Positions 1-28,661 of a stretch of DNA of 64,000 nucleotides are shown here, piece by piece (position 1 is the first letter of the stretch; the number at the start of each line of letters is the position of its first letter). The translations under genes and the position numbers were made by a program. The notes below the pieces were generated by a model. That model saw nothing but the letters and a program-made list of their open reading frames with translations, ran no database searches and was not told the DNA's origin. The stretch lies in assembly GCF_025699485.1 (NCBI RefSeq), contig NZ_JANUXN010000007.1, forward strand, positions 1-64,000, read 5' to 3'. This stretch comes from Thauera carbonicopians. GTDB lineage: Bacteria; Pseudomonadota; Gammaproteobacteria; Burkholderiales; Rhodocyclaceae.

Positions 1-77
1 GGGCTGCGCTTGAGTTTGTACAGCAGATCGGTGCCGATGTTGCCCGGGCCGATCAGCGCGCATTTGATCTTGTTCAT
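1..77 (-). CDS. mhpF: Acetaldehyde dehydrogenase (acylating), 5' fragment cut by window edge
   Basis: Only the first 25 codons are inside the window. The start reads [19 protein letters not shown], the N-terminal Rossmann motif (GPGNIGTD) of the acylating acetaldehyde dehydrogenases MhpF/DmpF/BphJ. These convert acetaldehyde from the pathway aldolase to acetyl-CoA with NAD and CoA. A good ribosome site (AAGGAG) lies about 7 bases before the ATG. It follows the hydratase gene by some 30 bases on the same strand, which is the usual lower meta-cleavage order; the aldolase MhpE would be expected beyond the edge. Confidence 0.9.
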
Positions 78-108
78 TCGTTCACTCCTTGGGGAATCTC
101 GTTCCGTT

Positions 109-903
109 TCAGGCGAAGCTCGCCTCGACGTGGCCGAGACCTTCGATATCGACAGCAAAGGTCTGGGGGCGCAGCGGATCGACCGCGACCATGGGCCCGA
201 GCGCGCCGGTCAGCACGATGTCGCCGGCCTGCAGCGGGCGGCCGACGCGGACGAGCATGTCTGCCAGCCAGATCGCTGCATTGAGCGGATTGCCCAAGCA
301 GGAGCGGGCGTTGCCTTCGGATACCACGCGTTCTCCTTCCAGCATCCGTATGCCGCAGCGACCCAGGTCGAAGGAGCCGGGCTTGACTGGATTGCCGCCC
401 AGCACGAAGAGGCCTGAGGACGCGTTGTCGGCGATGGTGTCGAAGAGTCCGATGCGCCAATCGGCGATGCGGCTGTCCACGATCTCCACTGCCGGCAGGA
501 AGTAGGCGACGGCATTCAGAACGTCTGCATAGGTGTGGCGCTCGAACTCGAGGGGTCGATCGAGCACGAAGGCGATTTCCGCCTCCACCTTGGGCTGGAT
601 CAGGCGGCCGCGGGCGACCGGTTCGGCGTCGCCCACTGCCATGTCGGCGAACAGCATGCCGAAATCGGGCTGGTCCACGCCGAGTTGGCGCTGCACCGCT
701 GGCGAAGTGAGGCCGATCTTTCGCCCCACCAGTCGGCGTCCGGCCGTCAGCGCGCGCTGGGTGTTGTGCGCCTGGATGGCGTAGGCGTGTTCAATCGAGG
801 GGTCGGCGAAGCTTTCGCGCAGCGGTGCGATGGGTCGGCCTTGGGTGATCGCTGCGTGCAGGCGGTCGGCCGCCGCGACGATGTCGGTGGATATGTCGCT
901 CAT
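109..903 (-). CDS. mhpD: 2-keto-4-pentenoate hydratase
   Basis: 264 residues, the normal length for the MhpD/DmpE/BphH hydratases, which add water to 2-hydroxypenta-2,4-dienoate to give 4-hydroxy-2-oxovalerate. Family landmarks include [13 protein letters not shown] near residue 60, the metal-site stretch [13 protein letters not shown] near residue 105, and GNPVKPG followed by [11 protein letters not shown] near the C-terminus. It sits between the extradiol dioxygenase and the acylating aldehyde dehydrogenase, so it is the third step of ring-cleavage product processing. The match to the family is strong. The choice between an mhp, xyl or bph lineage rests on the neighbouring MhpB. Confidence 0.92.
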
Positions 904-921
904 TCGGGAATCCTGCGTGAA

Positions 922-1875
922 TCAGTGTTTGCGGCCGTAGCCGGAGATGGCGCCGAAGCCGGCCATCCATTCGGGAATGGCGCGGTAGTAGCGTTCGCTT
1001 GCATCCCATTGGCCGCCGCTTGCCGCGTCCATCGCCGCAGTTGCTGCCACCCAGGTCCTGACTTCATGGGCGGAGGCGCCGGCAGCTTCGGTGACGGCAT
1101 CGTTGCGCCACGCGTCGATCGCGCCCCAGTCGCGGGTACATAGGTCGTGGATCAGGTTGCGATCCCACTCAGGGGCGAGCGGATGCTGCTCGCTTACTCC
1201 GGTGGCGAAGGCACGTGCGGCGGCGACGGTGCGTTTCTGGCGGGCGTCGCGTGCCTCCGGCGTAGGGTTGCGGCCAGCGACGATGCGTTCCACCACTTCC
1301 GGGTCGGTTGCGGTGGCGATGCGGGGAATGGGCGGGTTGTGAGACATGCCGCCCGAGGCGACGAAGAGTGCGCGCTGGCTGCGCCCGCGGGCGAAGTCGC
1401 CGATGGCTGTGCCCAACTGGCGGGCACGGCGGAAACTCGCCAGCGGCGGCGCCACCGCGTTCATCATGATGGGCACGACCGGGTAGCGTGCCAGCCCGCC
1501 CAGTATCTCCTGCAGGGGCTGGGCAAAGCCGTGGTCCACCTGCATGCGGTAGGAAAAGGCGATGTCGATGTCGCGGGCGATCACCGCTTCGGCACAGGCT
1601 TCGGCGATGTCGCGCGGCACCGACAGAGGGCCGGCAGGCGTGGTGTAGTCACCCACCGAGGTGGCGGCCATGCCCACGCAGAACTGAGGCATCAGGTCGA
1701 GGAAGAAACCGTTGTAGTGGTCGGGAGCGAAGAGGTAGATCATTTCCGGATCGAAGTGCGCCACTTCTGCGCTCACCGCTGCGACCAGTGCCGCGACTTC
1801 CGCGACCACCTCATCGGACGGATCGAAGTAACCCTTGAGGGGCGTATGCGACATGCACTGCAGCATCGTGTTCAT
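922..1875 (-). CDS. mhpB: Class III extradiol dioxygenase, MhpB type (2,3-dihydroxyphenylpropionate 1,2-dioxygenase)
   Basis: 317 residues from an ATG with GGAGG nine bases upstream; longer in-frame starts reach into the upstream gene and were discarded. The sequence follows E. coli MhpB closely: [11 protein letters not shown] near residue 50, [11 protein letters not shown] with His115, GGMSHNPP with His179, and IPEWIAGFG-like IPEWMAGFG near the end. His115 and His179 match the catalytic histidines of MhpB in both position and context. The enzyme cleaves a catechol with a 3-carboxyalkyl side chain next to the hydroxyls, using Fe(II). This implies that the pathway passes through 2,3-dihydroxyphenylpropionate or a close analogue rather than catechol itself. 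Confidence 0.93.
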
Positions 1876-1898
1876 CTCATGTTTCCTCCGCGCCGCCC

Positions 1899-2795
1899 TC
1901 AGGAGCCGACGCGCTCTGCCTCGGGGACGTCGCCCCCCAGCAGGAAGGCCAGGTGGATGCGGTTGAACACCTGTGGATCCTCGAATTGGGGCCAGTGGCC
2001 GCAGCCTTCCATCACGGTGAACAAGGCGCCGGGGATCATCGAGGCCATGCGGCGGCCTTCGGCCACGTTGGCAGTGGGGTCGTGGGAGGTCCACAGCACC
2101 AGCGTTGGTGCCTGGATGCGGCCGTAATCCTCGGCGCGCAGGATGTTGCGCAGGCGCACGTCCATTTCCTGCAGGACCATGTTGTGCTTCATCGCCTCGT
2201 TCATGCCGGGGCGCGCATAGATGGCCTGGCGGGCGGCGATCAGGTCATCATAGGCCTTGGACTTGTCGGCCATCAGCCATTCGACGCGGGCCTTGATGAA
2301 GGCCCAGCTTGGGTCGCTCGCCGCCTGCAGTGACAGCGTTTTGAGCCGCGCCATGACCGCCGGGTCGGCCTGTGAACCGCCGGCAGTGTTGAGCACCAGG
2401 CGTTCGACCCGGTCGGGGTGGTCGATGGCCATGCGTGCCGCGACCCAGCCGCCCAGGGATTCTCCGGAGAAACTGGCGCGCTCGATCTTCTGCGCATCCA
2501 TGAAGCGCAGGATGTGATCGATGTAGGCCGGGATCTCCAGGTCACGGCTTGCCAGGTCGGACCAGCCGTGGCCGATCATGTCGATGGCCCAGGTGGAGAA
2601 ATGGTGGCCGTGGGCCTTGAGGTTGCGCACGTAGGCTTCGGCGTGGCCACCGACACCGTGCAGCAGGAACAACGCTGGCTGTGAAGTCTGGCCGCTGTGC
2701 AGATAGCGGGTGGCGATACCGCCCGCGTCCACCCAGCCCTGGCTGAAGCTGGTCTCTCTGAACTCGGCCCAGATGCTTTGATGGGTGCTTTCCAA
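1899..2795 (-). CDS. mhpC: Meta-cleavage product hydrolase, MhpC-like alpha/beta hydrolase
   Basis: 298 residues if started at the TTG preceded by GGAG eight bases upstream. A GTG 147 bases further up would add a non-conserved, low-complexity tail with no ribosome site. The catalytic triad is visible: nucleophile Ser113 in SGESLGG, Asp239 in WTSHDP and His267 in GCGHWPQ, each within four residues of E. coli MhpC Ser110/Asp235/His263. The oxyanion-hole motif is LLHGVGG. The enzyme hydrolyses the C-C bond of the ring-fission product to release hydroxypentadienoate and an acid. The nucleophile elbow GESLGG differs slightly from the common GNSMGG. Confidence 0.9.
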
Positions 2796-2970
2796 AATTC
2801 GGACTCCGTGGGGATTGGGGGCGGAGCAGGGGGGCGTCGCGCAATGTTGTGCCTCGCGAGTCCCATCCCCACTCCAGCCTGGAAGCCTCCGCTCCGCGAT
2901 GTCGTTCAGCAGGTGGCACTCATGCCGGAACCCCTGTTTCACGCCCTGAAGGGGAGGGAGCGAATCCAGG

Positions 2971-4311
2971 TCAGTCTTCGATTTGATCGACGAAATAACG
3001 CGGCGGCTTGCCTTCGGCGGTGTCCTTGAAGCGGATCGAATGGGTCTTGATCGAACCGGCTACGCCTTTGCCAGGCTTGGCAATGCCGCGGTTCCAGCGC
3101 GAAGCCATCTTGCGCCAGGTGATGGGCGAGATGTCCGTGGCGACGAGTTGCTCGTCGTCCCAGCCGGTGCCGTCGGCATAGAAATTCTGCATTGCCTCGC
3201 GTGCGTACAGATCGCAATCGTTGAATCCGTGCAGGCATAAGGGCTTGTACACCCGATCGAATTTGTACTGGAAATCGTCGCGTTCCTTCTGCGTGGGGCA
3301 GACCCTGACCAGGACTTCCCAGTATTCGTGGGTGTCGTCGGTGATGGGCACGTACCATTCGTATTGCGCCACGTGCTCGGTTGGCCAGTTTTCCACCAGC
3401 AGCACGCCGGGCAGCACGACCGAGGTGCGATAGAAGCGACCCTTGATGCCTTCCACTTTCAGGCCCAGTTCCTCGTTTTCCAATACCGGTACCCACTTGT
3501 CGGTGAAGAGCCACTGCATCAGGCCCTTGGGGCCGTTCTCGTCCTCGACCACAGCGATGCAGTCGTCGGACGTGGGCAGGATGCCTAGCGGCAGCACCCA
3601 GTCCATAGCGTGGACGATGGTGTTGTCCTTGTGCACCAGGATGTGGGCGTTGTCGAAACCGTTCTCGCAGGCAATGCGCCAGTTGCCGAAACCGGTGCGG
3701 TGCATGCCGTGGGCCACGGCGTTGTCGTCGAGTACGCTGGGGGCAGACGGCCACAGCGGGTGGGGGAAGCGTTCGCTGTTCTCGGGGAAGCGGAAGGGCA
3801 GATCGTGGGCGAGCGGCGGCACGTCCTCGTCGGGGAAGTCATCCTCGCGCACGAAGACGAACACCATGCCGGCGACTTCCTCGGTCGGATAGCTGGTAAT
3901 GCCGGTGGTGCCAACCAGTTTGTCGTCGGGGTTGGCGACGATGGTGGAGAGCTTGCCGTCCTTCAGATCGAAGGTGAAGCCGTGGTACCAGCAGGTGATG
4001 GTCTTCTTGTTGAAGCACATGGGCTTCTCGGACAGGCGAACGCCGCGGTGAAGGCATTGATCCTTCAGCGCAAACACCTTGCCGTTCACGCGGCGCAGCA
4101 CGATGGGGATGCCACAGATCTGGATGCCCTTGACTTCGTCCTCGGCTAGTTCCTTGGTGAACACGGCCGGGTACCAGTGGTTGATGAAGCCCCAGGCTGC
4201 ATCCTTGTAGGGCTGGTACTGGCTCTGGGTCTTGGCGTTGTTGGTGCGTGCGTCGCTGATGCCGTGGCCCTTGGCAACGGTGCGCCGGCGTACGATCGGT
4301 TCGTCTGCCAT
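2971..4311 (-). CDS. Rieske non-heme iron oxygenase, large subunit (CarAa/OxoO-type)
   Basis: 446 residues. The Rieske cluster ligands are Cys86/His88 (CLHRG) and Cys107/His110 (CWYHG). The mononuclear iron ligands are His223 and His227 in FDNAHILVHKD, with the distal Asp in FNDCDLYAREAM. This pattern and the NHWYP start match the homotrimeric group that holds carbazole 1,9a-dioxygenase CarAa and 2-oxoquinoline 8-monooxygenase OxoO; from memory OxoO is also 446 residues. No small subunit, ferredoxin or dedicated reductase gene is nearby, so electrons must come from elsewhere. It lies between the flavin reductase and the MhpC-like hydrolase, so it probably makes the dihydroxylated ring that MhpB cleaves. 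The substrate is inferred, not shown. Confidence 0.88.
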   Translation of the reverse strand: MADEPIVRRRTVAKGHGISDARTNNAKTQSQYQPYKDAAWGFINHWYPAVFTKELAEDEVKGIQICGIPIVLRRVNGKVFALKDQCLHRGVRLSEKPMCFNKKTITCWYHGFTFDLKDGKLSTIVANPDDKLVGTTGITSYPTEEVAGMVFVFVREDDFPDEDVPPLAHDLPFRFPENSERFPHPLWPSAPSVLDDNAVAHGMHRTGFGNWRIACENGFDNAHILVHKDNTIVHAMDWVLPLGILPTSDDCIAVVEDENGPKGLMQWLFTDKWVPVLENEELGLKVEGIKGRFYRTSVVLPGVLLVENWPTEHVAQYEWYVPITDDTHEYWEVLVRVCPTQKERDDFQYKFDRVYKPLCLHGFNDCDLYAREAMQNFYADGTGWDDEQLVATDISPITWRKMASRWNRGIAKPGKGVAGSIKTHSIRFKDTAEGKPPRYFVDQIED

Positions 4312-4491
4312 TTGTTTCTCCTTCGTGTGTCAGGGGTTTGCTTGGGATTTCCGGTTCAGGCGCACCCGCGTGCGGGATGCATCGCGCACCGTTCGAGATC
4401 AATGCTAGGGATTGCCGGCATCCGGGGCGCTCCCGTGCCTACCGGCTTTATCCCGTCAGTGCACAATTCGGGAATGGTCTGCCAGGCACGC

Positions 4492-4986
4492 TCAGGCGGC
4501 GCCAGGTTCCGCCGCGATCGAGGCGTAGCGGCCACGGCAGAAGAGAAGCGGCGCGGGCGATGCCGCCGGCAGCGACAGGCGCAGCACCTGGCCTACGAGG
4601 ATCAGATGATCGCCCCCGTCGTAGAGGTGCTTGGTCTGGCACTCGAATATCGTTTCCACCCCGGCGATCACGGGTACGCCACCGAAGCCTTCTTCCAGCG
4701 TGAGGGAGGCGAACTTGTCGGTAGACGCTTGCGCGAAGCGATCCGACAGTGAACGCTGATGCGCAGCCAGCACGTGTACGGCAAAGTGCCGTGCCTTGGC
4801 GAAGGACTCGAAACTCAGGGCCCGGCGGTCCAGACTCCACAGCACCAGCGGTGGCGACAGCGAGACGGTGTTGAAGCTGCTGGCGGTCACTCCCACCGGC
4901 CGGCCTTCTCCGTCGCGCGTGGTGATGATGGTGACGCCGGTGGCGAACTGGCCAAAGGCCTGGCGCAGCAGGCGGGTATCGATCAT
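4492..4986 (-). CDS. NAD(P)H:flavin reductase, StyB/HpaC-like
   Basis: 164 residues from an ATG with a GGAGA ribosome site, the usual size of the short-chain flavin reductases (StyB, HpaC, DszD). The family motifs GVTIITTRDGEGRPVGVTASSF near the N-terminus and SLSPPLVLWSLD are present. It should reduce free FAD or FMN with NAD(P)H and pass it to a two-component monooxygenase; the obvious partner is the StyA-like protein two genes upstream. It could also feed electrons to something else, since the Rieske oxygenase has no reductase beside it, though that enzyme class does not normally accept electrons this way. Confidence 0.88.
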   Translation of the reverse strand: MIDTRLLRQAFGQFATGVTIITTRDGEGRPVGVTASSFNTVSLSPPLVLWSLDRRALSFESFAKARHFAVHVLAAHQRSLSDRFAQASTDKFASLTLEEGFGGVPVIAGVETIFECQTKHLYDGGDHLILVGQVLRLSLPAASPAPLLFCRGRYASIAAEPGAA

Positions 4987-4996
4987 GGCGATCTCC

Positions 4997-6199
4997 TCAG
5001 AAACGCAGGCCATAGGACACCGACAGCCAGTGTTGCCCCATGTAGGGATCGGTCATGCCGTCGGGGCCGTTGCCCGTACCGTGGGTCGTTTCACTGAAGG
5101 AACGGGTGTAGGCCACCGACAGTTCGTCGCCGTTGCCGAGCATGTGGCTTGCCCCCATCGTGAGGTGGCGCCGGTTGGCCGCGGGTGCGAGCGCGCCCAG
5201 GTAGGTGTGGCGGCTGTCCAGCAGACGACTGCCGTGGTTGTAGCCAGCCCGCAGGGTCCATGCCGCATCGAGCGTATAGGCCGCGCCGATACGCCATACG
5301 GTCTGGTTCTTCCAGCCGAAGCCGGGTCCATGATCGCTGCCGGGTGCGCCGGTGCTGCTGCCGACACCGCCGTTGCCGTAGGCGCGCACGTCGCGCCACA
5401 GGATGCGCAGCACGTCCGCACCCAGAGTCAGTGCTCCCTGCGTCCAGGCGAGGCCCAGGCCGTAGTTGGCAGGAATGTCCATGTCGCCCTTCTCGGGCAG
5501 CAGGCCGGCGAATTTGTCCATCCGCCCCATGTTGACCTTGCTGGCGTAGGTGGCGCCCGCGGTCAGGCCTGGTGCCAGCGTACCCTGCCAGCCGACGCGC
5601 AGGCCGGCACCCCAGGACTTGTCGCGTCCTTCCGGCAGGCCGATGCTGGCCGGCCCGTCGATATCGAGATCCTGGCGGGCGACGACCACACCGAACCCGA
5701 GCGCGTGGGCATTGCCGACGCGGCGCGCATAGCTCAGCGTGATCACCATCTGCTGGAGTGCGGAGCGGGGCGATGCCATGCCGCCGACGTTGTCGCTGCT
5801 GCCGTAGTTGGTGCCGACGCCGTTGCCGATCACACTCACGCCTACACTGCTGGCTGAGTCGATCATGTGGTTGTACCCGAACTGGGGTATCACGTAGAGG
5901 GACGTGTCCTTGCTGCCGGAATGGCGGACGCCGGCAAAGCGGACGCCGTTGTCTACCTTCAACAACGCGAGGCCGAGATCAAGGCGGTCACCGACGGCAA
6001 CCATGCCGGCCGGGTTGGTTGCGCCGGCCACGGCATCCTGCGGCAGCGCCACGCCGACGCCGCCCATGCCCTCGGATCTGACGCCGTAGCCGTGGGGGAA
6101 GATGCCCTGGGTTGCTGTCGCGGTGCCGCAGTGCAGAGCGCCGGCGATCAGCAGCGCCAGGCTCGAGGCTTCGATATGCTTCATTGCCGCGGTCCTCAT
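4997..6199 (-). CDS. FadL/OmpP1-family outer membrane transport protein
   Basis: 400 residues with an N-terminal signal peptide ending near GTATA. The mature start, TQGIFPHGYGVRSEGMGGVGVALPQD, resembles the FadL/TodX hatch region, followed by NPAGM and a long run of alternating amphipathic strands ending in the terminal aromatic LSVSYGLRF. Proteins of this family (TodX, XylN, StyE-like) let hydrophobic aromatics through the outer membrane. The start codon overlaps the stop of the monooxygenase gene (ATGA), so the two are translationally coupled. An alternative ATG five codons in would also keep the signal peptide. Its presence argues for a hydrophobic pathway substrate. Confidence 0.88.
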   Translation of the reverse strand: MRTAAMKHIEASSLALLIAGALHCGTATATQGIFPHGYGVRSEGMGGVGVALPQDAVAGATNPAGMVAVGDRLDLGLALLKVDNGVRFAGVRHSGSKDTSLYVIPQFGYNHMIDSASSVGVSVIGNGVGTNYGSSDNVGGMASPRSALQQMVITLSYARRVGNAHALGFGVVVARQDLDIDGPASIGLPEGRDKSWGAGLRVGWQGTLAPGLTAGATYASKVNMGRMDKFAGLLPEKGDMDIPANYGLGLAWTQGALTLGADVLRILWRDVRAYGNGGVGSSTGAPGSDHGPGFGWKNQTVWRIGAAYTLDAAWTLRAGYNHGSRLLDSRHTYLGALAPAANRRHLTMGASHMLGNGDELSVAYTRSFSETTHGTGNGPDGMTDPYMGQHWLSVSYGLRF

Positions 6200-7425
6200 G
6201 CCGTTACTTCGAAGGAGGCGAGGAGGCGGTCGGCTTCGGCGTCATCGTAGTACCACGGGGCCAGACCCTTGGGGTCGTCGAAGGCATTGGCGACGCGGGC
6301 GGCGAGCCTGGGGTTGGAGCCGCAGGCGGCGAAGATCTTGAGCAAGCGGGGTGGCGGAGGGAGGAGGTGGGTGTTGGTGAAGCGTGCCACCCATTGTGCG
6401 TAGTCCCAATAGGTCTCGAAAGTGGCCTTCATCCAGACCTCGTCGAAAGCGGCTGCGCCGTGTGCAGTGATCGCTTCCTGATAGATGGTTGCGCACTTGC
6501 TGGCGTTGTTCGAGCCTTGGCCGGTGATCGGATCGTTGAGTACGAGTACGTCGGCCATGCCCATGACTGCGCGGCCGGACGGCAGGCGCCCCACCACCTT
6601 GCGTACGGTGGGCGTGATGCGGCCGACCAGTGTGCCCAGATCGTCGGTCAGGCGCAGATCGGTACAGCGTTCGGCCTCCCAGGGGAAATACGTGCGGATC
6701 AGCTCGACTGCGAGTACGAGGTGCTCGGCTGGCGTCTTCACCTCGTCCCAGCGGTCCATCGGGCCGCCAGGGATGCACTCCAGATTGATGATGTCGCAGG
6801 GGCCGGTGTGGGTCAGCCCGGGGAAGTTCACGTACTCGCCAATACCTGGATTGATGCTGATGTTGAGCGCCGACCAGTCCGCGCGCGGCTTCATCTCATG
6901 GACATAGGTGAGTGAAATGGTGCGCTGCGGACAGTCGAATACGCTGCGTTCGGCATCGCGCTCGAACAGCTTGCCGATTTCACCTTTTCCGGTGGAGACC
7001 ACTACCAGATCGGCGGCGTCCGCATAGCGCTCCAATGCAGCCAGGTCCGCGTCATCGATCAGCAGCCGGCCTCCGCGGCGTTCGAACTCGCCCATCCACG
7101 CCGGCATCTTGATGCGCTGGTCTACTGACTGACCCGGTGCCGTCATTGGCGAGCGCCAGTCGACCAGCAGCTTGCCGTCGCTGCCGCCTGCACGCATGTG
7201 GACTCCGGTGATGGGTGGGCATTCCTGATCCCAGAAGGCAAGTCCGAGCCCGCGCTCGTATCCGACCGCCATGTCGTACATGGACTGGCTGGACATGACT
7301 CGACCGCGGGCGATTTCGTCGGCGCTGCGATTGGAGACGATGGTGACCTCGTAGCCTCGGGCAAGGAGGCCGATACCCAACTGCAGGCCTGCCTGGCCCG
7401 CACCGATGATGGTGATCTTTCGCAT
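6196..7425 (-). CDS. StyA-like group E flavoprotein monooxygenase
   Basis: 409 residues, the size of styrene monooxygenase StyA (about 415). The N-terminal FAD-binding motif is IIGAGQAGLQLGIGLLARGY. The middle motif VVSTGKGEIGKLFERD corresponds to the StyA stretch VVCTGKYALGKVFE. The later MGMADVLVLNDPITGQGSNNAS matches the StyA region GDIQATVDPVLGQGANMAS. StyA and the indole oxygenases of this group epoxidise a side-chain or ring double bond using reduced FAD from a separate reductase, here probably the gene at 4492. It is the first structural gene of the cluster. Identity with StyA looks moderate, so styrene, indole or another alkenyl/heteroaromatic substrate are all possible. Confidence 0.87.
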   Translation of the reverse strand: MRKITIIGAGQAGLQLGIGLLARGYEVTIVSNRSADEIARGRVMSSQSMYDMAVGYERGLGLAFWDQECPPITGVHMRAGGSDGKLLVDWRSPMTAPGQSVDQRIKMPAWMGEFERRGGRLLIDDADLAALERYADAADLVVVSTGKGEIGKLFERDAERSVFDCPQRTISLTYVHEMKPRADWSALNISINPGIGEYVNFPGLTHTGPCDIINLECIPGGPMDRWDEVKTPAEHLVLAVELIRTYFPWEAERCTDLRLTDDLGTLVGRITPTVRKVVGRLPSGRAVMGMADVLVLNDPITGQGSNNASKCATIYQEAITAHGAAAFDEVWMKATFETYWDYAQWVARFTNTHLLPPPPRLLKIFAACGSNPRLAARVANAFDDPKGLAPWYYDDAEADRLLASFEVTA

Positions 7426-7530
7426 TATTTCTGCTCCGTCGTGAGGGGGCCTTCGTTATTGAAGGCACGGCTAATTTGACGGATGCAGGAGGTGGGAAAT
7501 ATGCGCAGACTGCAATGACTATGCAGGAAT

Positions 7531-7573
7531 TGCAGAAATGTGAAGCAGCGCCGGGGTGATGCAGGGATGTGAA
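7531..7573. promoter_or_regulatory. Tandem 14-bp direct repeat, candidate AraC/XylS-type activator site
   Basis: Two copies of TGCAGrrATGTGAA (AA in the first, GG in the second) lie at 7531-7544 and 7560-7573, 29 bp apart, about 105-150 bp upstream of the StyA-like gene. Read on the minus strand they are TTCACATyyCTGCA. Extra TGCA half-sites lie between them and the start codon. Tandem sites with a TGCA core are typical of XylS-group regulators, and two such regulator genes begin just upstream. Confidence 0.6.
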
Positions 7574-7608
7574 GTGCCGGCTGCCGTGACGGCGTTCAAA
7601 TCACTGAA

Positions 7609-8589
7609 TCAGCGGGACTTTGCCAGGGTCTCGTGAGGCGACTCGCCGTACCGGCGGCGATAGTCGATCGCGAAACGGCCGAGCTGGAAGAAGCCCCACT
7701 GTGTGGCGAGAGCGGTAACGCTGGCCGGCTGCGCTGGATCGAGCAGGTCGGCACGTACCCGCTCCATGCGCAGATCGCGCAGATAGCGCATGGGACTTAT
7801 CCCGAGGAATTTGCGAAAACCGTCGTACAGCGTGCGCCCGCTGACGCCGACATGGTGCGCCAGCATCTCCACGGTGATCGGCTGCTCCGGGTACGTGCGC
7901 AGGTATTCTTCTGCCTGGCGGACGTGGCGAGGCAGCACGGTACGGGTAGAGCAGGCCGTCGCGGCGGCGAAACTGCCCGGCAGCCAGTTCAGCGCGGTGG
8001 TCAACAGCATTTGTTCGATCTGGCTGCTGACCAGTGGTTCGTCGGCCAGTGCGGGGTTGCAGCGCAGTTCGTCGAACATGTGGCGCGCGGTCCTCACCCA
8101 GGTACGGACCGTGGGTGATTCGAGATCGGCAATGGGCAGGAAGGAAAGCTTGCCGGCCGATTCCCGTCCCGCCAGCAGCGAGGCATGCCGTTCGAGCGCT
8201 TCCCGCTCGATGCGCACGACGAACTTGCTGCAATCGGCACTCCAATGCATGTCGAGCTGGCTGTCGGGCGCATGGACGGTGGCGTGGCGGGGGTCGCACA
8301 GCAACTCGGCACCGTCCACTCGCATGCGGTCGTGGCCCGAAGCTGGCACCTGTACCAGGAAGAAGGACTGCAGGCAACCGGGCGCTATGGCGACTTCCGC
8401 GCCATAGCGCATCTCGCTGAAGCTCACCGCGCCCATGCGCTGATGAATGTGCAGGTAATCGAGCCGTTCCCTGCCGCGGGTCTGCGCCAGACGGTGATCA
8501 CAGTAGATGTCGGCCACGATGCGGCGTGTCTCGTCTACATCATGTGAGCGGTAGGTGGCTGGTGGCGGACAGAGCCCGGATTCTTGCAT
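7609..8589 (-). CDS. AraC/XylS-family transcriptional regulator (first of two)
   Basis: About 326 residues from the ATG reading MQESGLCPPPATYRSHD; a longer in-frame start is possible but gives a non-conserved basic leader. The N-terminal half is an AraC-binding-like effector domain (YLHIHQRMGAVSFSEMRYG, then VQVPASGHD). The last ~100 residues hold the double helix-turn-helix: ITVEMLAHHVGVSGRTLYDGF, then ATQWGFFQLGRFAIDYRRRYGESPHETL. The layout resembles aromatic-pathway activators such as XylS, AntR and OxoS. It lies directly upstream of the catabolic operon in the same orientation and is the best candidate to act at the tandem repeat at 7531-7573. Confidence 0.88.
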   Translation of the reverse strand: MQESGLCPPPATYRSHDVDETRRIVADIYCDHRLAQTRGRERLDYLHIHQRMGAVSFSEMRYGAEVAIAPGCLQSFFLVQVPASGHDRMRVDGAELLCDPRHATVHAPDSQLDMHWSADCSKFVVRIEREALERHASLLAGRESAGKLSFLPIADLESPTVRTWVRTARHMFDELRCNPALADEPLVSSQIEQMLLTTALNWLPGSFAAATACSTRTVLPRHVRQAEEYLRTYPEQPITVEMLAHHVGVSGRTLYDGFRKFLGISPMRYLRDLRMERVRADLLDPAQPASVTALATQWGFFQLGRFAIDYRRRYGESPHETLAKSR

Positions 8590-8835
8590 CAAGCCTGCAG
8601 TCCTCGAATAGGTGGTTGCGGATAGCCTTCGCCGGGCCATGCCGCGGACGTGCGGTGCAGCGACAGACCTTGTTCGGACCATGCTGGCTGAGCTTGGTGG
8701 GGTGCGCACTCCGCTGAGCGCCGATCTTATCCTGCCAGTGCAGGATGGCCGCCGTTCCCGTGTGATGAAGGCAGGGCCTGACCCTGGTCCAATGCGGGGA
8801 AGTCCGCGGCGATGCCGCGGAAGATATTGCCGTAC

Positions 8836-9837
8836 CTAGCGCGCCAGGGTTTCGGATGGACTTTCGCCGAAGCGGCGCTTGTAGTCGGTGGTGAAGTGCC
8901 CGAGATGATTGAAGCCCCAGCGAAAGGCGACTGCGGTCACCGTGCTCTCGCCGGGCATGAGGCGCTTGAGCTCTTCGTTGACCCGGCGCATGCGCACCTC
9001 TTTCAGGTAGAGCATGGGCGTAGTGTTGCGGAAGCGGCGGAAGCCCGTGAACATCGAGCGCGTGCTCACGTTTGCGTGCTCGGCCAGATCGAGAATGGTG
9101 ATCGGTTCGTTGGCGTGCTCCTCGATGTAGTGCTCGATGCGCTTGACGAAAGCCGGGGCGATGGAGCGGTCTTCCTGGGTCAGGGCCTCGCTGTAGTTGT
9201 GTGCCTGACAGGTGAGCAGCATGGTGATGACCATCTGCTCGGTCTGAGCCGCGATCAGCGGCGAATGAAGGCCTTCGTCCTCGGTCAGGTTGGTGTGAAG
9301 CCAGGTCATCAGCCGCATCCACCGTTGTCCGGCCGCGGTGTCGAGCGCCATCGTGGGGCGGAAGGTGATGGGCGCGCGCAAGGCCTGACCCAGATGCTGG
9401 ATGCAATAGCGTTCGAGTACGTCCCGGTCGATGCGCACGACCAGCTTCTCGGTGTCGCTTTCGTGGCGGATCTGGACCGGCAGGTGGGCATTGAGCACGG
9501 AAGCCGTGCGCAGCGTCGAACACAGGGTTTCACCGCCGGTCTCGATGATTTCGCGCCCGCGCAGCGGCATCTGCACCAGCACGAAGGAATCCAGGGTGCC
9601 AGGATCGATGGCTACTTCGCCACCGTAGCTCATGCGCCCCACGCCCAGGCCGCGCAGGCGGCGGTAGTACATGCGGGTGTGGATCGGCTTTCGGGTGTCG
9701 AGCCTGCTCAGGCGGTTCTCACAGAACACACGGGCGCCCCACTGGCGTGCTTCTTCGATGTCGCTCGTCTGGAACAGCTCAAAGCCAGGCAGATCGGCGC
9801 CCGCCAAGGGAGGCGAGGCATAGATTGCGCTTTCCAT
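8836..9837 (-). CDS. AraC/XylS-family transcriptional regulator (second of two)
   Basis: 333 residues. It has the same architecture as the neighbouring regulator: an N-terminal effector domain (YYRRLRGLGVGRMSYGGEVAIDPG) and a C-terminal AraC HTH (ITILDLAEHANVSTRSMFTGF, then AFRWGFNHLGHFTTDYKRRFGESPSETL). The two proteins share many landmark blocks (EVAIDPG/EVAIAPG, VRI-R--LERH/Y), so they look like paralogues from a local duplication that have diverged. A pair may mean that two effectors, or an upper and a lower pathway, are sensed separately. The stop falls about 245 bases before the start of the other regulator, so they need not be one transcript. Confidence 0.88.
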   Translation of the reverse strand: MESAIYASPPLAGADLPGFELFQTSDIEEARQWGARVFCENRLSRLDTRKPIHTRMYYRRLRGLGVGRMSYGGEVAIDPGTLDSFVLVQMPLRGREIIETGGETLCSTLRTASVLNAHLPVQIRHESDTEKLVVRIDRDVLERYCIQHLGQALRAPITFRPTMALDTAAGQRWMRLMTWLHTNLTEDEGLHSPLIAAQTEQMVITMLLTCQAHNYSEALTQEDRSIAPAFVKRIEHYIEEHANEPITILDLAEHANVSTRSMFTGFRRFRNTTPMLYLKEVRMRRVNEELKRLMPGESTVTAVAFRWGFNHLGHFTTDYKRRFGESPSETLAR

Positions 9838-10390
9838 TGCGTCGTTTCTCTATTGTCGGGTTCGAATGAACTCATGCCTCTGCTGCTTGGTGCGGGCTGT
9901 GGTCCATGGGCACTATTGCAGTGCATCAACGATCCATCGGAGGGCATCGGCAGAGTGATGCGGTGCCCGGGAACATCGGCAAGTCGCTTTTCCATCAAGG
10001 AAATGGCTTGTTGGGTCGGCGAAGTGATGGCTGCTTGAAGCAAGGCTCGTGCCAAAAAGTATTCATGCAGGCCTTTCCTCCAGGCGGAGTTGCCTGGAGG
10101 ACGTATGGACGTCGTGCGGGAAAGTGGAAAGATTGCTGCGGATGCCGGTTGTGAAGTGCCGGCAGCCTTTCCCGCCCCTTTTCCTGGGCCGGGTCACGCA
10201 GTGTGCAGGAGAGTGTCGTCCGGCTGCTGGCCTGGGAATCCGCCGGATTCAGGCTCAAGCGACTTTTCTGGGGCGGTCCAACGTTTTTGGGAGGACACCA
10301 CCGTGATCCGATGATTGGTGAGCTGCCATGACGGTTCCTTGGACCGCATGAGGGCTCGGTTCTGCCGTGATGGGGAGGCCTGACTGGCTC
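9838..10390. other. Intergenic stretch with one strong inverted repeat
   Basis: No credible gene on either strand; short open frames lack ribosome sites and family motifs. A perfect 9-bp inverted repeat (CCTCCAGGC, 6-base loop, GCCTGGAGG) lies at 10077-10100. It has no T-tract on either side, so it is not an obvious intrinsic terminator. The stretch separates the aromatic cluster regulators from the end of the sulfhydrylase operon. Confidence 0.6.
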
Positions 10391-13991
<3,601 letters not shown>

Positions 13992-13998
13992 GGGGTCT

Positions 13999-14541
13999 TC
14001 AGTGGTGATTGCCGTGATGCGTGTGGGCGGCACCGGCCGGCTGGAAGGGGCGGTTCTCGTATTCCTCGCTGGCGACGAAGTCGCTCAACTGGCGGAAGCC
14101 GTCGGCATCCAGGACGCCGGTGTGGCGGTAGAGAACTTCGCCCTGGCCGTCGAGGAAGACGAAGGACGGTGTGCCCAGCGCGCGCAGGCGGCGGGCCCAC
14201 TGGCCGGGCGTGGTGGTCTCGCCGTCGGGCAGGACCAGGACCGACTCCTGCGCGATGTCCACCCTGACGGTGGCAAAGCGCGTGCCGAAGTCCTTTTCGG
14301 TGGCCGCGTCGTGGAACACGTTGTGCTCCATCTCCCGGCAGCCGGGGCAGCCGGGCATGGTCAGGAACACGGCCAGCTTGCGGCCGGAGTCCGCCGCCGA
14401 GCGGGTCTCGGCCCGCAAGTCGCGGGTTTCGCGTTCGAACAGTACGGCACTGGCCGGGCCGGCGCTTGCAGCCAGCAGCGAGGCCAGCAGCAGCGCGGCG
14501 AGGCGGGGGCGGGCGGGGCGGAAAGAGAGCATGGCGAACAT
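13999..14541 (-). CDS. Periplasmic thioredoxin-fold protein with CPGC motif
   Basis: 180 residues with a clear signal peptide (basic start, then a leucine/alanine-rich core ending at ASA near residue 31). The redox motif is MPGCPGCREME near residue 62, followed by DIAQESVLVLPDGE and the cis-proline segment GTPSFVFLDGQGEVLYRHTG. It resembles SoxW and the thioredoxin-related DUF255-like oxidoreductases, which reduce disulfides or thiol adducts in the periplasm. The C-terminus is histidine-rich (HTHHGNHH), which could bind a metal. It sits between the ABC permease and the CoA-transferase genes, an unusual place for such a protein. Confidence 0.85.
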   Translation of the reverse strand: MFAMLSFRPARPRLAALLLASLLAASAGPASAVLFERETRDLRAETRSAADSGRKLAVFLTMPGCPGCREMEHNVFHDAATEKDFGTRFATVRVDIAQESVLVLPDGETTTPGQWARRLRALGTPSFVFLDGQGEVLYRHTGVLDADGFRQLSDFVASEEYENRPFQPAGAAHTHHGNHH

Positions 14542-15406: not shown

Positions 15407-16198
15407 TCAGGCGGAGACGAGTTGACGCAGGGTGTCGGCGGCCAGGGTTTCGGCGATGGATTCGCGCAGGGCGTGGAAGCCGGCGCTGTCGAACAGCGTG
15501 CGGCGGTCGCGGTGGCGGGGAAAGGGGACGGGCAGGTCGGCGATCAGCCGGCCGGGCGTCGAACCGAGCACGACGACGCGATCGCCCAGGTACAGGGCTT
15601 CGTCGATGTCGTGGGTGACGAAGACGATGGTCTTTTTCGTCGTATCGGCTTCCCAGGCTTCGGTCAGCAGATCCTGCAGGCGGGCGCGGTTGGCGGGGTC
15701 GAGCGCGCCGAAGGGTTCGTCCATCAGCAGCACTGGCGAGCGCAGCGCCAGCGCGCGTGCGATGGCGGCGCGCTGGCGCATGCCGCCGGACAGTTCGAAC
15801 GGATACAGGCTGACCGCCGACTCCAGCCCGACCTTGGCCAGGCAGTCCGCCGCCTGGGCGCGGCAATCCGCCTTGCGCAGCTCCGGCTGGGCCTTGCCGA
15901 TGGCAATCGCGATGTTGTCGACCACGCTCATCCACGGGAACAAGGCGTAGTCCTGGAACACCACGCCACGGTCGAAGCCGGGACCGGTGATCGGCCTGCC
16001 CTTGCGCAGCAGCCGTCCCCGGCCGGGAAACTGCAGGCCGGCCAGCAGGCGCAGCAATGTCGATTTGCCCGAGCCGCTGGCCCCCAGCAGGCAAACGAAC
16101 TGCCCGGCCGGGACGTCGAGGTCGATCTTCTCGAGGATCGGCGCCGCGCCTTCCTCGTAGGAAAAGCCGACGCCTTGCAGGCTCAACTCTGCGGTCAT
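15407..16198 (-). CDS. ABC transporter ATP-binding protein, SsuB/TauB/NrtD type
   Basis: 263 residues. It has Walker A LLGASGSGKSTLLRLLAG near residue 40, the Q-loop VVFQDYALFPWMSV near 88, signature LSGGMRQRAAIARAL near 138, Walker B SPVLLMDEPFGALD near 158 and the H-loop VFVTHDIDEA near 196. The PWMSV sequence after the Q-loop is typical of the nitrate/sulfonate/taurine ATPases. The start codon overlaps the stop of the binding-protein gene, so the ATPase is translationally coupled to it. Confidence 0.93.
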   Translation of the reverse strand: MTAELSLQGVGFSYEEGAAPILEKIDLDVPAGQFVCLLGASGSGKSTLLRLLAGLQFPGRGRLLRKGRPITGPGFDRGVVFQDYALFPWMSVVDNIAIAIGKAQPELRKADCRAQAADCLAKVGLESAVSLYPFELSGGMRQRAAIARALALRSPVLLMDEPFGALDPANRARLQDLLTEAWEADTTKKTIVFVTHDIDEALYLGDRVVVLGSTPGRLIADLPVPFPRHRDRRTLFDSAGFHALRESIAETLAADTLRQLVSA

Positions 16199-17220
16199 CA
16201 GCCGTTCTTCCGCTTGAAGTCCTGCTGCAGCTTCTGCCAGTAGGCGTCGGCCGGGTTTTCGGCGGCGAGCTGGTTCAGCACCTTCTCGTAGAACCGGGCA
16301 TCGATCGACGACGACACGTCCGGCGCCTTGGCGATGAATTCGCTGCTGGCCATGACGTCGGCGAAATGCCTGACGCCCTTGGCGTCCGGATCGCTGGACT
16401 GGTCGATGTACTGCGAGTAGTAGCCGCGCTGCAGCAGATCCTTGTCGAGCTTCACGTACTTGGCGATCGCCTCGATGGTGGCTTCCTTGTTCTCCGCGGC
16501 GAAGCGTTCGGCGAGCAGGATCGCGCGCAGGAACTTCTCCCAGGTCTCCGGGCTCTTGCCGTTCGCTTCGGTAATGACGAGGCGGCAGCAAGGGTGGCCC
16601 GGCTGCAGGTCGGTGGAATGGATGACGATCTGCAGCCCTTGTGCTTCGGCGCGCAGGTCATGCGGCCCCCAAACCAGGCCGACGTCCACCTGGCCGGACT
16701 TGACCGCTTCGATGACCGCCGATGGGTTCTTCAGCTCGAAGATTTCCAGGTCGGTCTTCCAGTTCAGGCCCGAATCCTTCAGCGCGCCACGCAACACCGC
16801 ATCGCCCGAAGCCATGCGCACGGTGGCGACTTTCTTGCCCTTGAGGTCGGCGATGTCCTTCACCTTGGCCGCGCCGGCCGGGGTGGTCACCAGTGCGGCG
16901 TCGCCGCCCATGATGCCGCCGATGATCTTCAGCCTGGTGCCCTTGGAGAGATGGGCGATCGGGCCGGTGGTGCCGAAGGCGCCGGTATCGAGCTTGCCGG
17001 CGATGATGGCATTGAGGCCGTCGGCGGAATTGTGGAACTCGACCAGTTCCACGTCCAGCCCTTCCCTGGCGAACAGGCCCTGCTCCTTGGCGACGAAGAA
17101 CTTGGCATGGCCGGTGGCCGGCAGGTAGCCGACCTTGAGCGATTCGGCGGCAGCGCTGCCGATGAGGCCGGCCAGGGCGAGGGCGGCAGCGAAGGACTTG
17201 AGGGCAAAGCGGGATTTCAT
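16198..17220 (-). CDS. ABC transporter substrate-binding protein, NMT1/SsuA-like
   Basis: 340 residues from an ATG with CAGGAG ten bases upstream. A signal peptide ends near SAAA at residue 25, and the mature protein begins ESLKVGYLPATGHAKFFVAKEQG. The NMT1/THI5-like fold is shown by GLNAIIAGKLDTGAFGTTGP and by VGLVWGPHDLRAEAQG. Related proteins bind nitrate, aliphatic sulfonates, taurine or pyrimidine precursors. The cargo cannot be read from the sequence. It is the first gene of the eight-gene run, and the inverted repeat at 17292-17312 lies just upstream of it. Confidence 0.9.
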   Translation of the reverse strand: MKSRFALKSFAAALALAGLIGSAAAESLKVGYLPATGHAKFFVAKEQGLFAREGLDVELVEFHNSADGLNAIIAGKLDTGAFGTTGPIAHLSKGTRLKIIGGIMGGDAALVTTPAGAAKVKDIADLKGKKVATVRMASGDAVLRGALKDSGLNWKTDLEIFELKNPSAVIEAVKSGQVDVGLVWGPHDLRAEAQGLQIVIHSTDLQPGHPCCRLVITEANGKSPETWEKFLRAILLAERFAAENKEATIEAIAKYVKLDKDLLQRGYYSQYIDQSSDPDAKGVRHFADVMASSEFIAKAPDVSSSIDARFYEKVLNQLAAENPADAYWQKLQQDFKRKNG

Positions 17221-17291
17221 GGCAGCTCCTGTGCAAATTCGTAGGCACGGAGTCTGCCAAATGGCCGTGGACGACCAAACCAAGCATTTCT

Positions 17292-17312
17292 GGTTTGCTT
17301 ATTCGGCAAACC
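17292..17312. promoter_or_regulatory. Inverted repeat upstream of the ABC importer operon
   Basis: A perfect 7-bp inverted repeat, GGTTTGC-TTATTCG-GCAAACC, lies about 70 bp before the binding-protein start codon and just after the Sel1-repeat gene. A further AAACCA half-site lies at about 17276-17281. There is no T-tract toward the operon, so an operator is more likely than a terminator. Confidence 0.5.
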
Positions 17313-17325
17313 GCAGATGGCGGGG

Positions 17326-18138
17326 TCAGTCTTCGCTGGCGACCTTGTCGGGCGTCGGATCGACGTGGCCTTCTTCGTCGGCCAGCGACAGCGCCTGGGC
17401 GGCCTTCATCTCGTCCGGGCCGAGTTTCAGTGCGATGTTGTCGCGTTCGTACACGCCGTCCATGTTCATCGCGGCAGCCGCGCGGTTGAACCATACGTAG
17501 GCCTGGACCGGGTTCACAGTGACGCCGAGTCCGCTGCGGTAGAGGCGGCCGAGCTCGACCATGGCATCGCTGTCACCCGCTTCGGCCGCAGTGCGAATCC
17601 ACTTCTCGGCATAGTCGTAGTTCTGCGGCATGCCCACGCCGCTGCGGTAGAGCTTGCCCAGTTGCAGCATGGCGCCGGCGTGGCCGCCGGTGGCTGCCTG
17701 CCGCAGCCAGGTGACCGCTTCGGCAGCGCCTTCCTTGCCGCGCGAAGTATCGAGCAGGGCCGCGCGGCCGAGGCGGAACTGTGCCTCGACGTCGCCGTTG
17801 CGCGCAGCTTCTTCGATCGTGGAGTTGACAGCGATTGCCGCCTGCGGGAAGTTGATCGCGGCTTCATCGTGCTCCGCCGCATCGGGCCACAACAGGACGA
17901 CGCTGCTCACCGCGCCGGCGACGACGGCTGCGGCGCCGATGGTCAGCAAGGAAGATCCGCCCGTCCGGCTTTTTTTCATCGCGGCGTCTGCCGAGGCGAT
18001 GAAGCGGTGCGAGCAGGCTTCGCAGCGATAGGGACGCTTGTCCGGGTTGTCGACTTTTTCCGTATGCGAACGCCAGCGCGACACGCGGCAGCGTGTCGAT
18101 GCACATTTGGGGCAGGAGATGCTGGCGCTTACGTCCAT
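17326..18138 (-). CDS. Zinc-ribbon, single-pass membrane protein with Sel1 repeats
   Basis: 270 residues from the ATG reading MDVSASISCPKCAS. The N-terminal ~50 residues carry two CxxC pairs (CPKC near 9-12, CEAC near 45-48) spaced like a zinc ribbon. Then come one membrane segment (LLTIGAAAVVAGAVSSVVLLW, residues ~65-86) and three or so Sel1-type helical repeats (AQFRLGRAALL, GAMLQLGKLYRSGVG, DAMVELGRLYRSGLG). Sel1 repeats mediate protein contacts, often in envelope or stress signalling. No partner is evident. It is separated from both neighbours and probably has its own promoter. Confidence 0.8.
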   Translation of the reverse strand: MDVSASISCPKCASTRCRVSRWRSHTEKVDNPDKRPYRCEACSHRFIASADAAMKKSRTGGSSLLTIGAAAVVAGAVSSVVLLWPDAAEHDEAAINFPQAAIAVNSTIEEAARNGDVEAQFRLGRAALLDTSRGKEGAAEAVTWLRQAATGGHAGAMLQLGKLYRSGVGMPQNYDYAEKWIRTAAEAGDSDAMVELGRLYRSGLGVTVNPVQAYVWFNRAAAAMNMDGVYERDNIALKLGPDEMKAAQALSLADEEGHVDPTPDKVASED

Positions 18139-18687
18139 GAAGAGGCCTTTCGGGATGACAGGTTGTGCAGTGCGGTCGGACCAGGCGCCCGGACGCAGGA
18201 ACGCAGTACAACATGGGCACACGCACGAACCGGATGCATGAAACGCGAACTGCGGCGGCGATTCTCGGGCAATGGCGGGCAGATTTCAATATCGCCAAAA
18301 CCATGAATGACAACAAGATCACGGGAATACGCTTGCCAGATGCATCGGGTGCAGGCAGAAAGGCCTCGTCGGTCTGCTGCGGCGCGGATGTGCTTTCCTG
18401 CGGAGGCGGAAGGCGGCGCCCAGGCGCTCATGAGCGGCCGAACCGGGGATGCGGCTGCTGGCGGTGGTTCCGCCTTACGGGACCGATGCCGTGCGGGGGG
18501 AAACATTCCCTTGGGCCGGGATCATGCGGCGTGAGCGCCGGCCGGTTCCGGCGCCGATCGATTTCATGCCGGGCATGAGGTCCGCAGGGGACATCATGCC
18601 CGGCTTCCGTTCCACCGCCTCGATCGCGCGGGACGGTGGAAAACCTGCAGCATGCAGCCTGTGTTGCCTACATGCGCAGGGAAGCGA
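18139..18687. other. Intergenic stretch with an 11-bp inverted repeat
   Basis: No convincing gene. A perfect 11-bp inverted repeat (GCCGGGCATGA, 15-base loop, TCATGCCCGGC) lies at 18568-18604, about 85 bases after the glutamate dehydrogenase stop. It may end that transcript or be a protein site; there is no T-tract. The part next to 18138 should contain the promoter for the Sel1-repeat gene. Confidence 0.55.
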
Positions 18688-20028: not shown

Positions 20029-20083
20029 GTCTTGATCCTCCTCCTTTGAATGGGAGACCTCGAGCAGGTCGGGCGCAGCAAAA

Positions 20084-23809: not shown

Positions 23810-23909
23810 GGAAAACCTCGAATCAAGGCGAAGTGATGTTCAATGGACTCAGGCAATCGGCTGGTTCGGGAAGTGTGCTCCGGATGGGCCGCTTCCGTCG
23901 CCGCGATGT

Positions 23910-23935
23910 GGCGCCCTCGGCATGCCGAGGGCGCC
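23910..23935. repeat. Perfect palindrome between putP and putA
   Basis: The 26 bases form a perfect 13-bp inverted repeat that can fold as an 11-bp GC-rich hairpin with a CATG loop. It begins 10 bases after the putP stop codon (minus strand). Without a T-tract it is more likely an mRNA-stabilising or attenuating intercistronic element than a strong terminator. Confidence 0.7.
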
Positions 23936-23944
23936 GGTGTGCTG

Positions 23945-25447: not shown

Positions 25448-25748
25448 CGTCATCGTCCTCCTGGAGTGTCGAGGCTGGAGTGGGGGCTTTGGAAGCGCTG
25501 CACGTCGGTCCGTACGAATGTCCGGCCGACGGGGGCCTTGTCTGTCCGAACCGGCTGGAGCGCTTGCGCAGAAAGCGGTGCGGTTCAGACAGAAGGGGTG
25601 TGGAAGCAAGAGTCACGCCATGACGTTTGCGCACTGTGATGCACCATAGATATGGTTTTTGGCCGCATATGCCCCGTCGATCCAAGTCTGCGCCTCCGCG
25701 CGGGGCTCGTAAAGCATTCGGCATGCAAGGGCCTTTGGTACGAGGGAA
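25448..25748. other. Upstream region of putP; no gene
   Basis: About 300 bases without a credible gene. It should hold the promoter of the putP-putA-gdh run and the 3' end signals of the cyclodeaminase-family gene. I saw no clear -35/-10 pair or strong hairpin. GCAC/GTGC half-sites at about 25630-25645 are too irregular to call as an NtrC site. Confidence 0.5.
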
Positions 25749-27446: not shown

Positions 27447-27503
27447 TGGACAGGTTCGTGTTCTTGCTGCTCATCCTCGCAGCAATGACTCCATCTCAGT
27501 TTG

Positions 27504-27540: not shown

Positions 27541-27541
27541 T

Positions 27542-27856: not shown

Positions 27857-27877
27857 ATGGCCCCCTGTGTCGAAGAG

Positions 27878-27925: not shown

Positions 27926-27933
27926 GATGAGAT

Positions 27934-28640: not shown

Positions 28641-28661
28641 TTCTAATCTCAGAGAGCCTCC

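What the first reader, a model, noticed from the sequence alone, without database searches (positions are those of the whole stretch)
1..9837. Hybrid catabolic cluster joining a StyA-type epoxidase, a CarAa/OxoO-type Rieske oxygenase and an mhp lower pathway
The sequence shows a complete run: two AraC regulators, StyA-like monooxygenase, FadL porin, flavin reductase, Rieske oxygenase, MhpC, MhpB, MhpD and MhpF. StyA, CarAa and Mhp enzymes are normally parts of different pathways. The Rieske group includes 2-oxoquinoline 8-monooxygenase, and quinoline breakdown by the coumarin route ends in 2,3-dihydroxyphenylpropionate, the MhpB substrate. I infer a pathway for a bicyclic N- or O-heteroaromatic (quinolone, indole or coumarin type) or an alkenylbenzene that meets the Mhp route. 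The exact substrate is unknown and the pathway may be undescribed.
Basis: partly seen in the sequence, partly recalled or inferred. Interest (0 to 1): 0.8.

Follow-up and report, generated by a model that had tools for sequence, protein, structure and literature searches.

The report
Split N-heterocycle degradation gene cluster
This is the left half of a roughly 26-kilobase set of genes with which a bacterium probably breaks down a two-ring nitrogen compound; it points to candidate enzymes for oxidising the starting compound and for removing its nitrogen, none of them yet tested at the bench.

Summary
The ten genes are real and in the stated order, all on the minus strand; mhpF is cut by the contig end after 77 bases. 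The Rieske enzyme is OxoO: 84% identical to 2-oxo-1,2-dihydroquinoline 8-monooxygenase of Pseudomonas putida 86. The StyA-like protein is not StyA. It belongs to a clade beside indole monooxygenases, all of whose 16 rows come from OxoO-bearing genomes (14 were chosen for OxoO), with two pocket phenylalanines replaced by Ile and Val. The cluster is half of a larger one: an OxoR-type reductase, a 5-nitroanthranilate-aminohydrolase-like protein (c2), two amidases and a second meta-cleavage set lie on another contig, and one relative shows both halves joined. In 399 genomes of the order, OxoO, this StyA type and c2 occur in the same two (one is the window's own). No quinoline 2-oxidoreductase was found in this genome or that relative. 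Best reading: StyA-like/flavin reductase make a bicyclic lactam, OxoO hydroxylates next to N, c2 plus amidase remove N, MhpB-F finish. The substrate (3-substituted indole or quinoline type) is not settled. Nothing here is experimental.

The parts
8836..9837 (-). AraC/XylS-type regulator 1
   Evidence: PF14525 + PF12833; 93% identical in P. rhizosphaerae; AndR cut-off not met (182 of 350 bits)
7609..8709 (-). AraC/XylS-type regulator 2, travels with the StyA-like gene (start uncertain, 8709 or 8589)
   Evidence: Pfam; start candidates; homologue upstream of StyA on the same strand in L011, L030, L035, L039, L040
6196..7425 (-). StyA-like two-component flavin monooxygenase of an OxoO-associated clade
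   Evidence: PF17885; 7ZCA 4e-148 against StyA 3IHM 3e-39; tree; fingerprint and pocket residues
4997..6199 (-). FadL/TodX-type outer-membrane porin
   Evidence: PF03349 3e-15
4492..4986 (-). flavin reductase, presumed FADH2 supplier of the StyA-like enzyme
   Evidence: PF01613; HpaC-, HsaB- and StyB-type models hit below cut-off; 65% homologue between StyA and OxoO in G454
2971..4311 (-). OxoO: 2-oxo-1,2-dihydroquinoline 8-monooxygenase, oxygenase component
   Evidence: 1Z01 E 4.9e-278; 83.8% identity over 445 aa; tree
1899..2795 (-). MhpC-like meta-cleavage-product hydrolase
   Evidence: Abhydrolase; HsaD model 122 of 400 bits
922..1875 (-). MhpB: 3-carboxyethylcatechol 2,3-dioxygenase
   Evidence: NF009908 512 bits over cut-off 467
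109..903 (-). MhpD-like 2-hydroxypentadienoate hydratase
   Evidence: NF008461 322 bits, cut-off 350
1..77 (-). 5' end of mhpF (acetaldehyde dehydrogenase), cut by contig end
   Evidence: Sequence; same 77 bases end contig C2, length 128609; intact mhpF, and mhpE by eye, follow in P. rhizosphaerae

Best explanation
It is the upper half of a catabolic cluster for a bicyclic N-heteroaromatic. The StyA-like oxygenase with its flavin reductase oxidises the N-ring to a lactam; I favour 2,3-epoxidation of a 3-substituted indole that rearranges to an oxindole, with quinoline to 2-oxoquinoline as the second candidate. OxoO with the OxoR-type reductase from the other contig hydroxylates the benzene ring next to N. 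The nitroanthranilate-aminohydrolase-like c2 hydrolyses the aryl C-N bond and leaves a primary amide; an amidase then releases ammonia, giving a catechol with an acid side chain. MhpB or the second extradiol enzyme opens the ring, MhpC-like hydrolases cut the product, and MhpD, E and F yield pyruvate and acetyl-CoA. Shown by sequence: gene content, the joined order in one relative, co-occurrence, OxoO identity, no recognised quinoline 2-oxidoreductase here or in that relative. Inferred: every reaction except the type of the OxoO and MhpB steps, the substrate, and the order of c2 and amidase.
Against: No experiment. OxoO's known substrate is 2-oxoquinoline, not an oxindole, and MhpB's known substrates (recalled) carry a straight three-carbon acid, which fits quinoline better than indole. 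21 of 38 OxoO genomes examined have no StyA relative at E 1e-40 and 3 have only the distant type, so StyA is optional. In c2 the His of the HxD metal motif and the residue mutated in 5K8P (R289, placed by my own counting) are not conserved at the aligned positions, so its chemistry is uncertain. PMC11945285 (passage) assigns the nitrogen-releasing step of quinoline in P. stutzeri H3 to a dioxygenase gene 'hdo'; I saw no evidence for that assignment in the passages, but it competes with c2. c8 lacks both cysteines of the hydantoin racemases at the aligned columns and I cannot place it. Joining of contigs C46 and C14 is inferred from synteny.
Confidence: 0.52

Rival explanations
1. Classical quinoline / 2-quinolone degradation by the 8-hydroxycoumarin route: OxoO gives 8-hydroxy-2-oxoquinoline, nitrogen is lost, MhpB cleaves 2,3-dihydroxyphenylpropionate or 2,3-dihydroxycinnamate. 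The substrate enters as the quinolone, and the StyA-like pair does a side or later step.
For: OxoO identity; MhpB over its cut-off and near OxoO in 11 of 78 loci; the route 2,8-dihydroxyquinoline to 8-hydroxycoumarin plus ammonium to 2,3-dihydroxyphenylpropionate is proposed from metabolites in a Rhodococcus (PMC9029321, passages).
Against: No quinoline 2-oxidoreductase in P. rhizosphaerae (0 MoCoBD_1 matches at E 1e-20) or recognised in the window genome; does not explain the recurrent StyA-OxoO linkage.
Confidence: 0.27
2. The StyA-like module is a separate indole detoxification or indigo-forming unit that happens to lie beside the OxoO genes.
For: Indole-monooxygenase fingerprint 5 of 6; relatives at 48-56% occur without OxoO (6 of 399 genomes).
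Against: Its clade is distinct and was found only with OxoO, though most rows were sampled from OxoO genomes; G030, G048, G051 and G454 hold both this type and an ordinary relative; gene order places it among OxoO, OxoR and c2.
Confidence: 0.12
3. Alkenylbenzene, cinnamate or coumarin catabolism with a StyA-type epoxidase.
For: StyA superfamily membership and an Mhp lower route.
Against: StyA model cut-off not met; 0 of 6 styrene fingerprint residues; OxoO, c2 and amidases have no evident role with an N-free substrate.
Confidence: 0.03

Closest known systems
Quinoline degradation genes of Pseudomonas putida 86 (OxoO/OxoR, PDB 1Z01)
   Same: OxoO 84% identical and in one family tree; an OxoR-type reductase is present on contig C14
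   Different: No quinoline 2-oxidoreductase recognised; a StyA-like module and an mhp set adjoin OxoO; the full P. putida 86 cluster was not available to me
Indole monooxygenases (7ZCA, VpIndA1 by recall; Iif systems)
   Same: Fold family, about 54% identity by eye, 5 of 6 fingerprint residues, flavin reductase partner
   Different: Separate clade; F191 and F201 changed to I and V, W352 to F (7ZCA numbering without tag)
ska skatole cluster of Rhodococcus (PMC13101512: sections 9, 11, 12 and passages read)
   Same: Group E epoxidase with reductase plus a ring-hydroxylating oxygenase in one cluster
   Different: SkaA is reported to lack the indole and styrene fingerprints; its ring oxygenase is three-component; LuxR-type regulator
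Skatole genes of Acinetobacter piscicola p38 (PMC11434297, passages)
   Same: StyA-type gene1687 with flavin reductase gene1688; a ring-hydroxylating oxygenase alpha subunit (gene1684) and an hcaC-type ferredoxin (gene1690) nearby are listed as upregulated
   Different: That ring oxygenase was not compared with OxoO here; no c2 or amidase seen in the passages
5-nitroanthranilate aminohydrolase (5K8M-5K8P), relative of c2
   Same: Closest solved fold and sequence profile
   Different: 22-23% identity; some catalytic residues not conserved at aligned columns; lies next to OxoR
mhp pathway (E. coli type)
   Same: MhpB, MhpD, MhpF (and MhpE, by eye, in P. rhizosphaerae)
   Different: No MhpA among the ten genes; the hydrolase is only MhpC-like

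Membership tests
OxoO (2-oxo-1,2-dihydroquinoline 8-monooxygenase) | Sequence placed within OxoO and away from CarAa | tested here: met
   83.8% identity; E 4.9e-278 against 2.5e-88 for CarAa; tree of OxoO rows
OxoO (2-oxo-1,2-dihydroquinoline 8-monooxygenase) | Rieske CxH/CxxH motif and 2-His-1-Asp iron site | tested here: met
   Residues align with 1Z01 without change; motif knowledge recalled
OxoO (2-oxo-1,2-dihydroquinoline 8-monooxygenase) | 8-hydroxylation of 2-oxoquinoline | not testable with these tools
   needs enzyme assay
Styrene monooxygenase StyA | NCBIfam StyA cut-off and N46-V48-H50-Y73-H76-S96 fingerprint | tested here: not met
   207 of 550 bits; 0 of 6 residues (fingerprint, alignment)
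Indole monooxygenase | S46-Q48-M50-V/I73-I76-A96 fingerprint | tested here: inconclusive
   5 of 6 by my alignment, V instead of I76; the last column is poorly kept among the 18 indole-type rows too
Indole monooxygenase | falls inside the clades with 7ZCA and 9LRQ | tested here: not met
   separate clade 98/98, joined with four sphingomonad rows at 97/85
MhpB 3-carboxyethylcatechol 2,3-dioxygenase | NCBIfam equivalog cut-off | tested here: met
   512 over 467 bits
Quinoline degradation via Qor | QorL-type molybdenum large subunit in the genome | tested here: not met
   P. rhizosphaerae 0 matches at E 1e-20; window genome (48 contigs) 2 matches, neither Qor-like: purine genes by eye around one, QorL only E 1.7e-7 for the other
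5-nitroanthranilate aminohydrolase (for c2, contig C14) | fold | tested here: met
5-nitroanthranilate aminohydrolase (for c2, contig C14) | HxD metal motif and R289 conserved | tested here: not met
   His aligned with Pro; position 289 aligned with Ala (my counting)

The most novel reading that the evidence does not exclude
A molybdenum-free entry into the OxoO pathway: an indole-monooxygenase-derived flavoenzyme with an enlarged pocket makes the bicyclic lactam (from skatole-like indoles or even quinoline), and c2 is a new aryl-amide C-N hydrolase that takes nitrogen out of 8-hydroxy-2-oxoquinoline-type lactams, followed by an indoleacetamide-hydrolase-like amidase.
Probability: 0.28. Interest if true: 0.75.

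Novelty: new variant of a known kind. Interest (0 to 1): 0.55.

Why it matters
From recall, the enzyme that replaces N by O in the 8-hydroxycoumarin route of quinoline has no settled identity; one paper names a dioxygenase gene 'hdo' for that step (PMC11945285, passage). The steps after the first oxidation of skatole are described as open in PMC13101512 (passages). A set conserved around OxoO (c2 in 62 and an amidase in 61 of 78 fetched loci) names specific candidates, and the StyA-like clade gives a marker for a pathway variant without the molybdenum enzyme. These can be tested with a handful of cloned genes and bear on the breakdown of N-heterocycles from coking waste, manure and plants.

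Tried and rejected
Qor-first quinoline route in this genome: looked for MoCoBD_1 proteins in the own genome (2 found, neither Qor-like) and in 31 of the OxoO genomes (28 of 31 have one or more at E 1e-20, 3 of 31 none). The matches in the 28 were not classified, so Qor in some of those genomes is not excluded.

c8 (Asp/Glu racemase family) as a maleate isomerase that would fit release of maleate: dropped, because both cysteines seen in the hydantoin racemase alignment are Thr and Ser in it (the Ser and its surroundings are conserved in 30 rows).

StyA as the step that removes N from 8-hydroxyquinolone by ipso-hydroxylation: my first idea (note); set aside once c2 was found in 62 of 78 loci against StyA in 9 of 78.

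Literature: in the listings and passages of searches I saw no paper that joins an OxoO with a StyA-type enzyme or with a nitroanthranilate-aminohydrolase relative. Listings of 35 (20 of 23), (20 of 83; 40 of 87) were capped. One search failed on syntax. I read passages of PMC8280871, PMC11434297, PMC6221969, PMC4675989, PMC9029321 and PMC11945285, and passages plus sections 9, 11 and 12 of PMC13101512. The library lacks most subscription journals, so this is weak evidence of novelty. After checking, the 'hdo' passage led me to lower the odds of the novel case from 0.30 to 0.28.

Promoter scan: no sigma-70-like site in 1-10500 (1.6 expected), 3 terminator-like sites (6.3 expected); not informative.

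Sampling limits: loci reach 10 kb either side or the contig end, so absences near OxoO are lower bounds. Of the 16 rows of the wider StyA clade, 14 come from genomes chosen for OxoO and one is the window; the order sample adds one independent genome (G454). The 12-row group was labelled by identity (59% or more) before its support was read. Gene calls in the loci were made by a simple script, so presence counts can miss genes.
Full report
What is there. On the minus strand of 1-9837 lie two AraC-type regulators, a StyA-like oxygenase, a FadL-type porin, a flavin reductase, a Rieske oxygenase, an MhpC-like hydrolase, MhpB, an MhpD-like hydratase and the first 77 bases of mhpF. Curated models qualify the names: MhpB passes its cut-off, while the StyA-like protein, the flavin reductase (StyB and others), the MhpD-like protein and the hydrolase do not pass those they hit.

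The Rieske enzyme is OxoO. Its best solved relative is 2-oxo-1,2-dihydroquinoline 8-monooxygenase of P. putida 86 (E 4.9e-278, against 2.5e-88 for CarAa), 83.8% identical over 445 residues. One scan of bacterial genomes gave 78 distinct loci with relatives of 71% identity or more (106 stretches were confirmed and the best 80 kept). In their tree the P. putida 86 enzyme sits among Pseudomonas loci and the window's beside Pseudothauera rhizosphaerae and Azoarcus sp. L1K30. In the window's own genus 5 of 29 genomes, the window's included, carry it at E 1e-100.

The window holds only part of the cluster. OxoO loci share neighbours that the window lacks: an OxoR-like Fer2/FAD/NAD reductase in 64 of 79 rows (78 loci plus the window) and a protein of about 440 residues, c2, in 62 of 79. 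Of the 62 loci with c2, 54 also have an amidase; 57 have both c2 and OxoR, and in 44 of these the two lie within 1.5 kb on one strand. In the window's genome the best reductase match (66% identity) and c2 (80%) sit together on contig C14, with a racemase-family protein, hydrolases, two amidases, an SDR, a BphC-like extradiol dioxygenase and an AraC regulator. The P. rhizosphaerae contig shows both halves joined in the order AraC, AraC, StyA, FadL, FlvR, OxoO, MhpC, MhpB, MhpD, MhpF, MhpE (by eye), ADH, a GntR-like gene (by eye), hydrolase, lipocalin, extradiol, AraC, OxoR, c2, racemase, hydrolase, amidase, amidase, SDR. Window bases align with its positions 4252-14166 and C14 with 15812-34549, leaving a gap where the rest of mhpF and mhpE lie. 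Contig C2 ends in the same 77 bases as the window's start, as expected for a collapsed repeat.

A complete genome, G454, repeats the design with two OxoO copies 97.5% alike in DNA: one heads MhpC-B-D-F, the other follows AraC, AraC, StyA, flavin reductase and precedes OxoR, c2 and the amidases; no FadL gene was seen there.

The StyA-like enzyme belongs to the OxoO system. Within 10 kb it accompanies OxoO in 9 of 78 loci, which needs 6 changes on the OxoO tree. In 38 OxoO genomes searched whole, 17 have a StyA relative at E 1e-40; 14 of these have one that falls in the window's clade or with its sphingomonad sisters (three Novosphingobium, one Sphingobium), and 3 have only more distant ones; 21 have none. 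In 399 genomes of the order, drawn by the tool, OxoO is in 2, StyA at 80% or more in the same 2, c2 at 84% or more in the same 2; six others have 48-56% StyA relatives without OxoO, and two others 27-28% c2 relatives. The two include the window's own genome, so only one is independent. Among 72,556 plasmid records a single one has OxoO over 60% and the same one c2 over 60%; no plasmid record has a StyA relative over 60%.

Its likely chemistry. By my alignment it has 5 of 6 residues of the indole-monooxygenase fingerprint and none of the styrene one (fingerprints from PMC13101512 section 11; alignment); the last of the six columns is poorly kept among the 18 indole-type rows as well. Twelve positions separate the 12-row clade from those 18 rows under the thresholds. 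Two of them, 191 and 201 in 7ZCA numbering without tag, are Phe in 17 of 18 (the exception is 7ZCA itself) and Ile and Val here. As far as printed, these are also the positions at which the three deposited 7Z-series sequences differ, so its crystallographers seem to have varied them; that the protein is VpIndA1 is recalled. I infer a wider pocket. G030, G048, G051 and G454 carry both types, so the two probably differ in role.

No quinoline 2-oxidoreductase recognised. P. rhizosphaerae has no MoCoBD_1 protein at E 1e-20. The window genome has two: one among what look by eye like guanine deaminase, XdhC and purine permease genes, the other nearest to an aldehyde dehydrogenase (E 3e-74) with QorL at 1.7e-7. 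So the lactam that OxoO needs must be taken up or made by another enzyme, and the StyA-like pair is the obvious candidate. Of the other OxoO genomes, 30 were searched and 28 have such proteins, which I did not classify.

Substrate. MhpB and OxoO speak for quinoline-type substrates, the StyA family for indole-type ones. Skatole fits both in part: SkaA turns it into 3-methyloxindole (PMC13101512, passages), and a StyA-type gene near an upregulated ring-hydroxylating oxygenase is listed for skatole in Acinetobacter piscicola p38 (PMC11434297, passages). I do not claim a substrate.

Verdict. A new variant of known N-heterocycle catabolism, split by an assembly gap, with two OxoO-associated enzymes of untested function. 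Moderately surprising, and directly testable.

Noticed in passing
window 27878-27929, minus strand: Guanidine-II riboswitch (Rfam 34.5 bits, gathering 32) just upstream of a small multidrug-resistance (SugE/Gdx-like) frame ending at 27542; the gene name is by eye.
   Followed up: partly
G454:C1 about 2256251 and 2271964 (L175-L177): Two OxoO copies 97.5% identical in DNA inside one cluster, a recent duplication or conversion.
   Followed up: partly
window 1-77 and C2 128533-128609 (L100): Two contigs end in the same 77 bases of mhpF, so a second near-identical mhpF probably follows another meta-cleavage gene set.
   Followed up: partly
L098:8406-9143: Asp/Glu-racemase family protein, with relatives in 30 of 79 OxoO rows, in which both cysteines of the hydantoin racemases are replaced; function open.
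   Followed up: partly
window 12169-14033: Two adjacent frames that look by eye like a CoA-transferase pair but gave no Pfam match at 1e-10.
   Followed up: no
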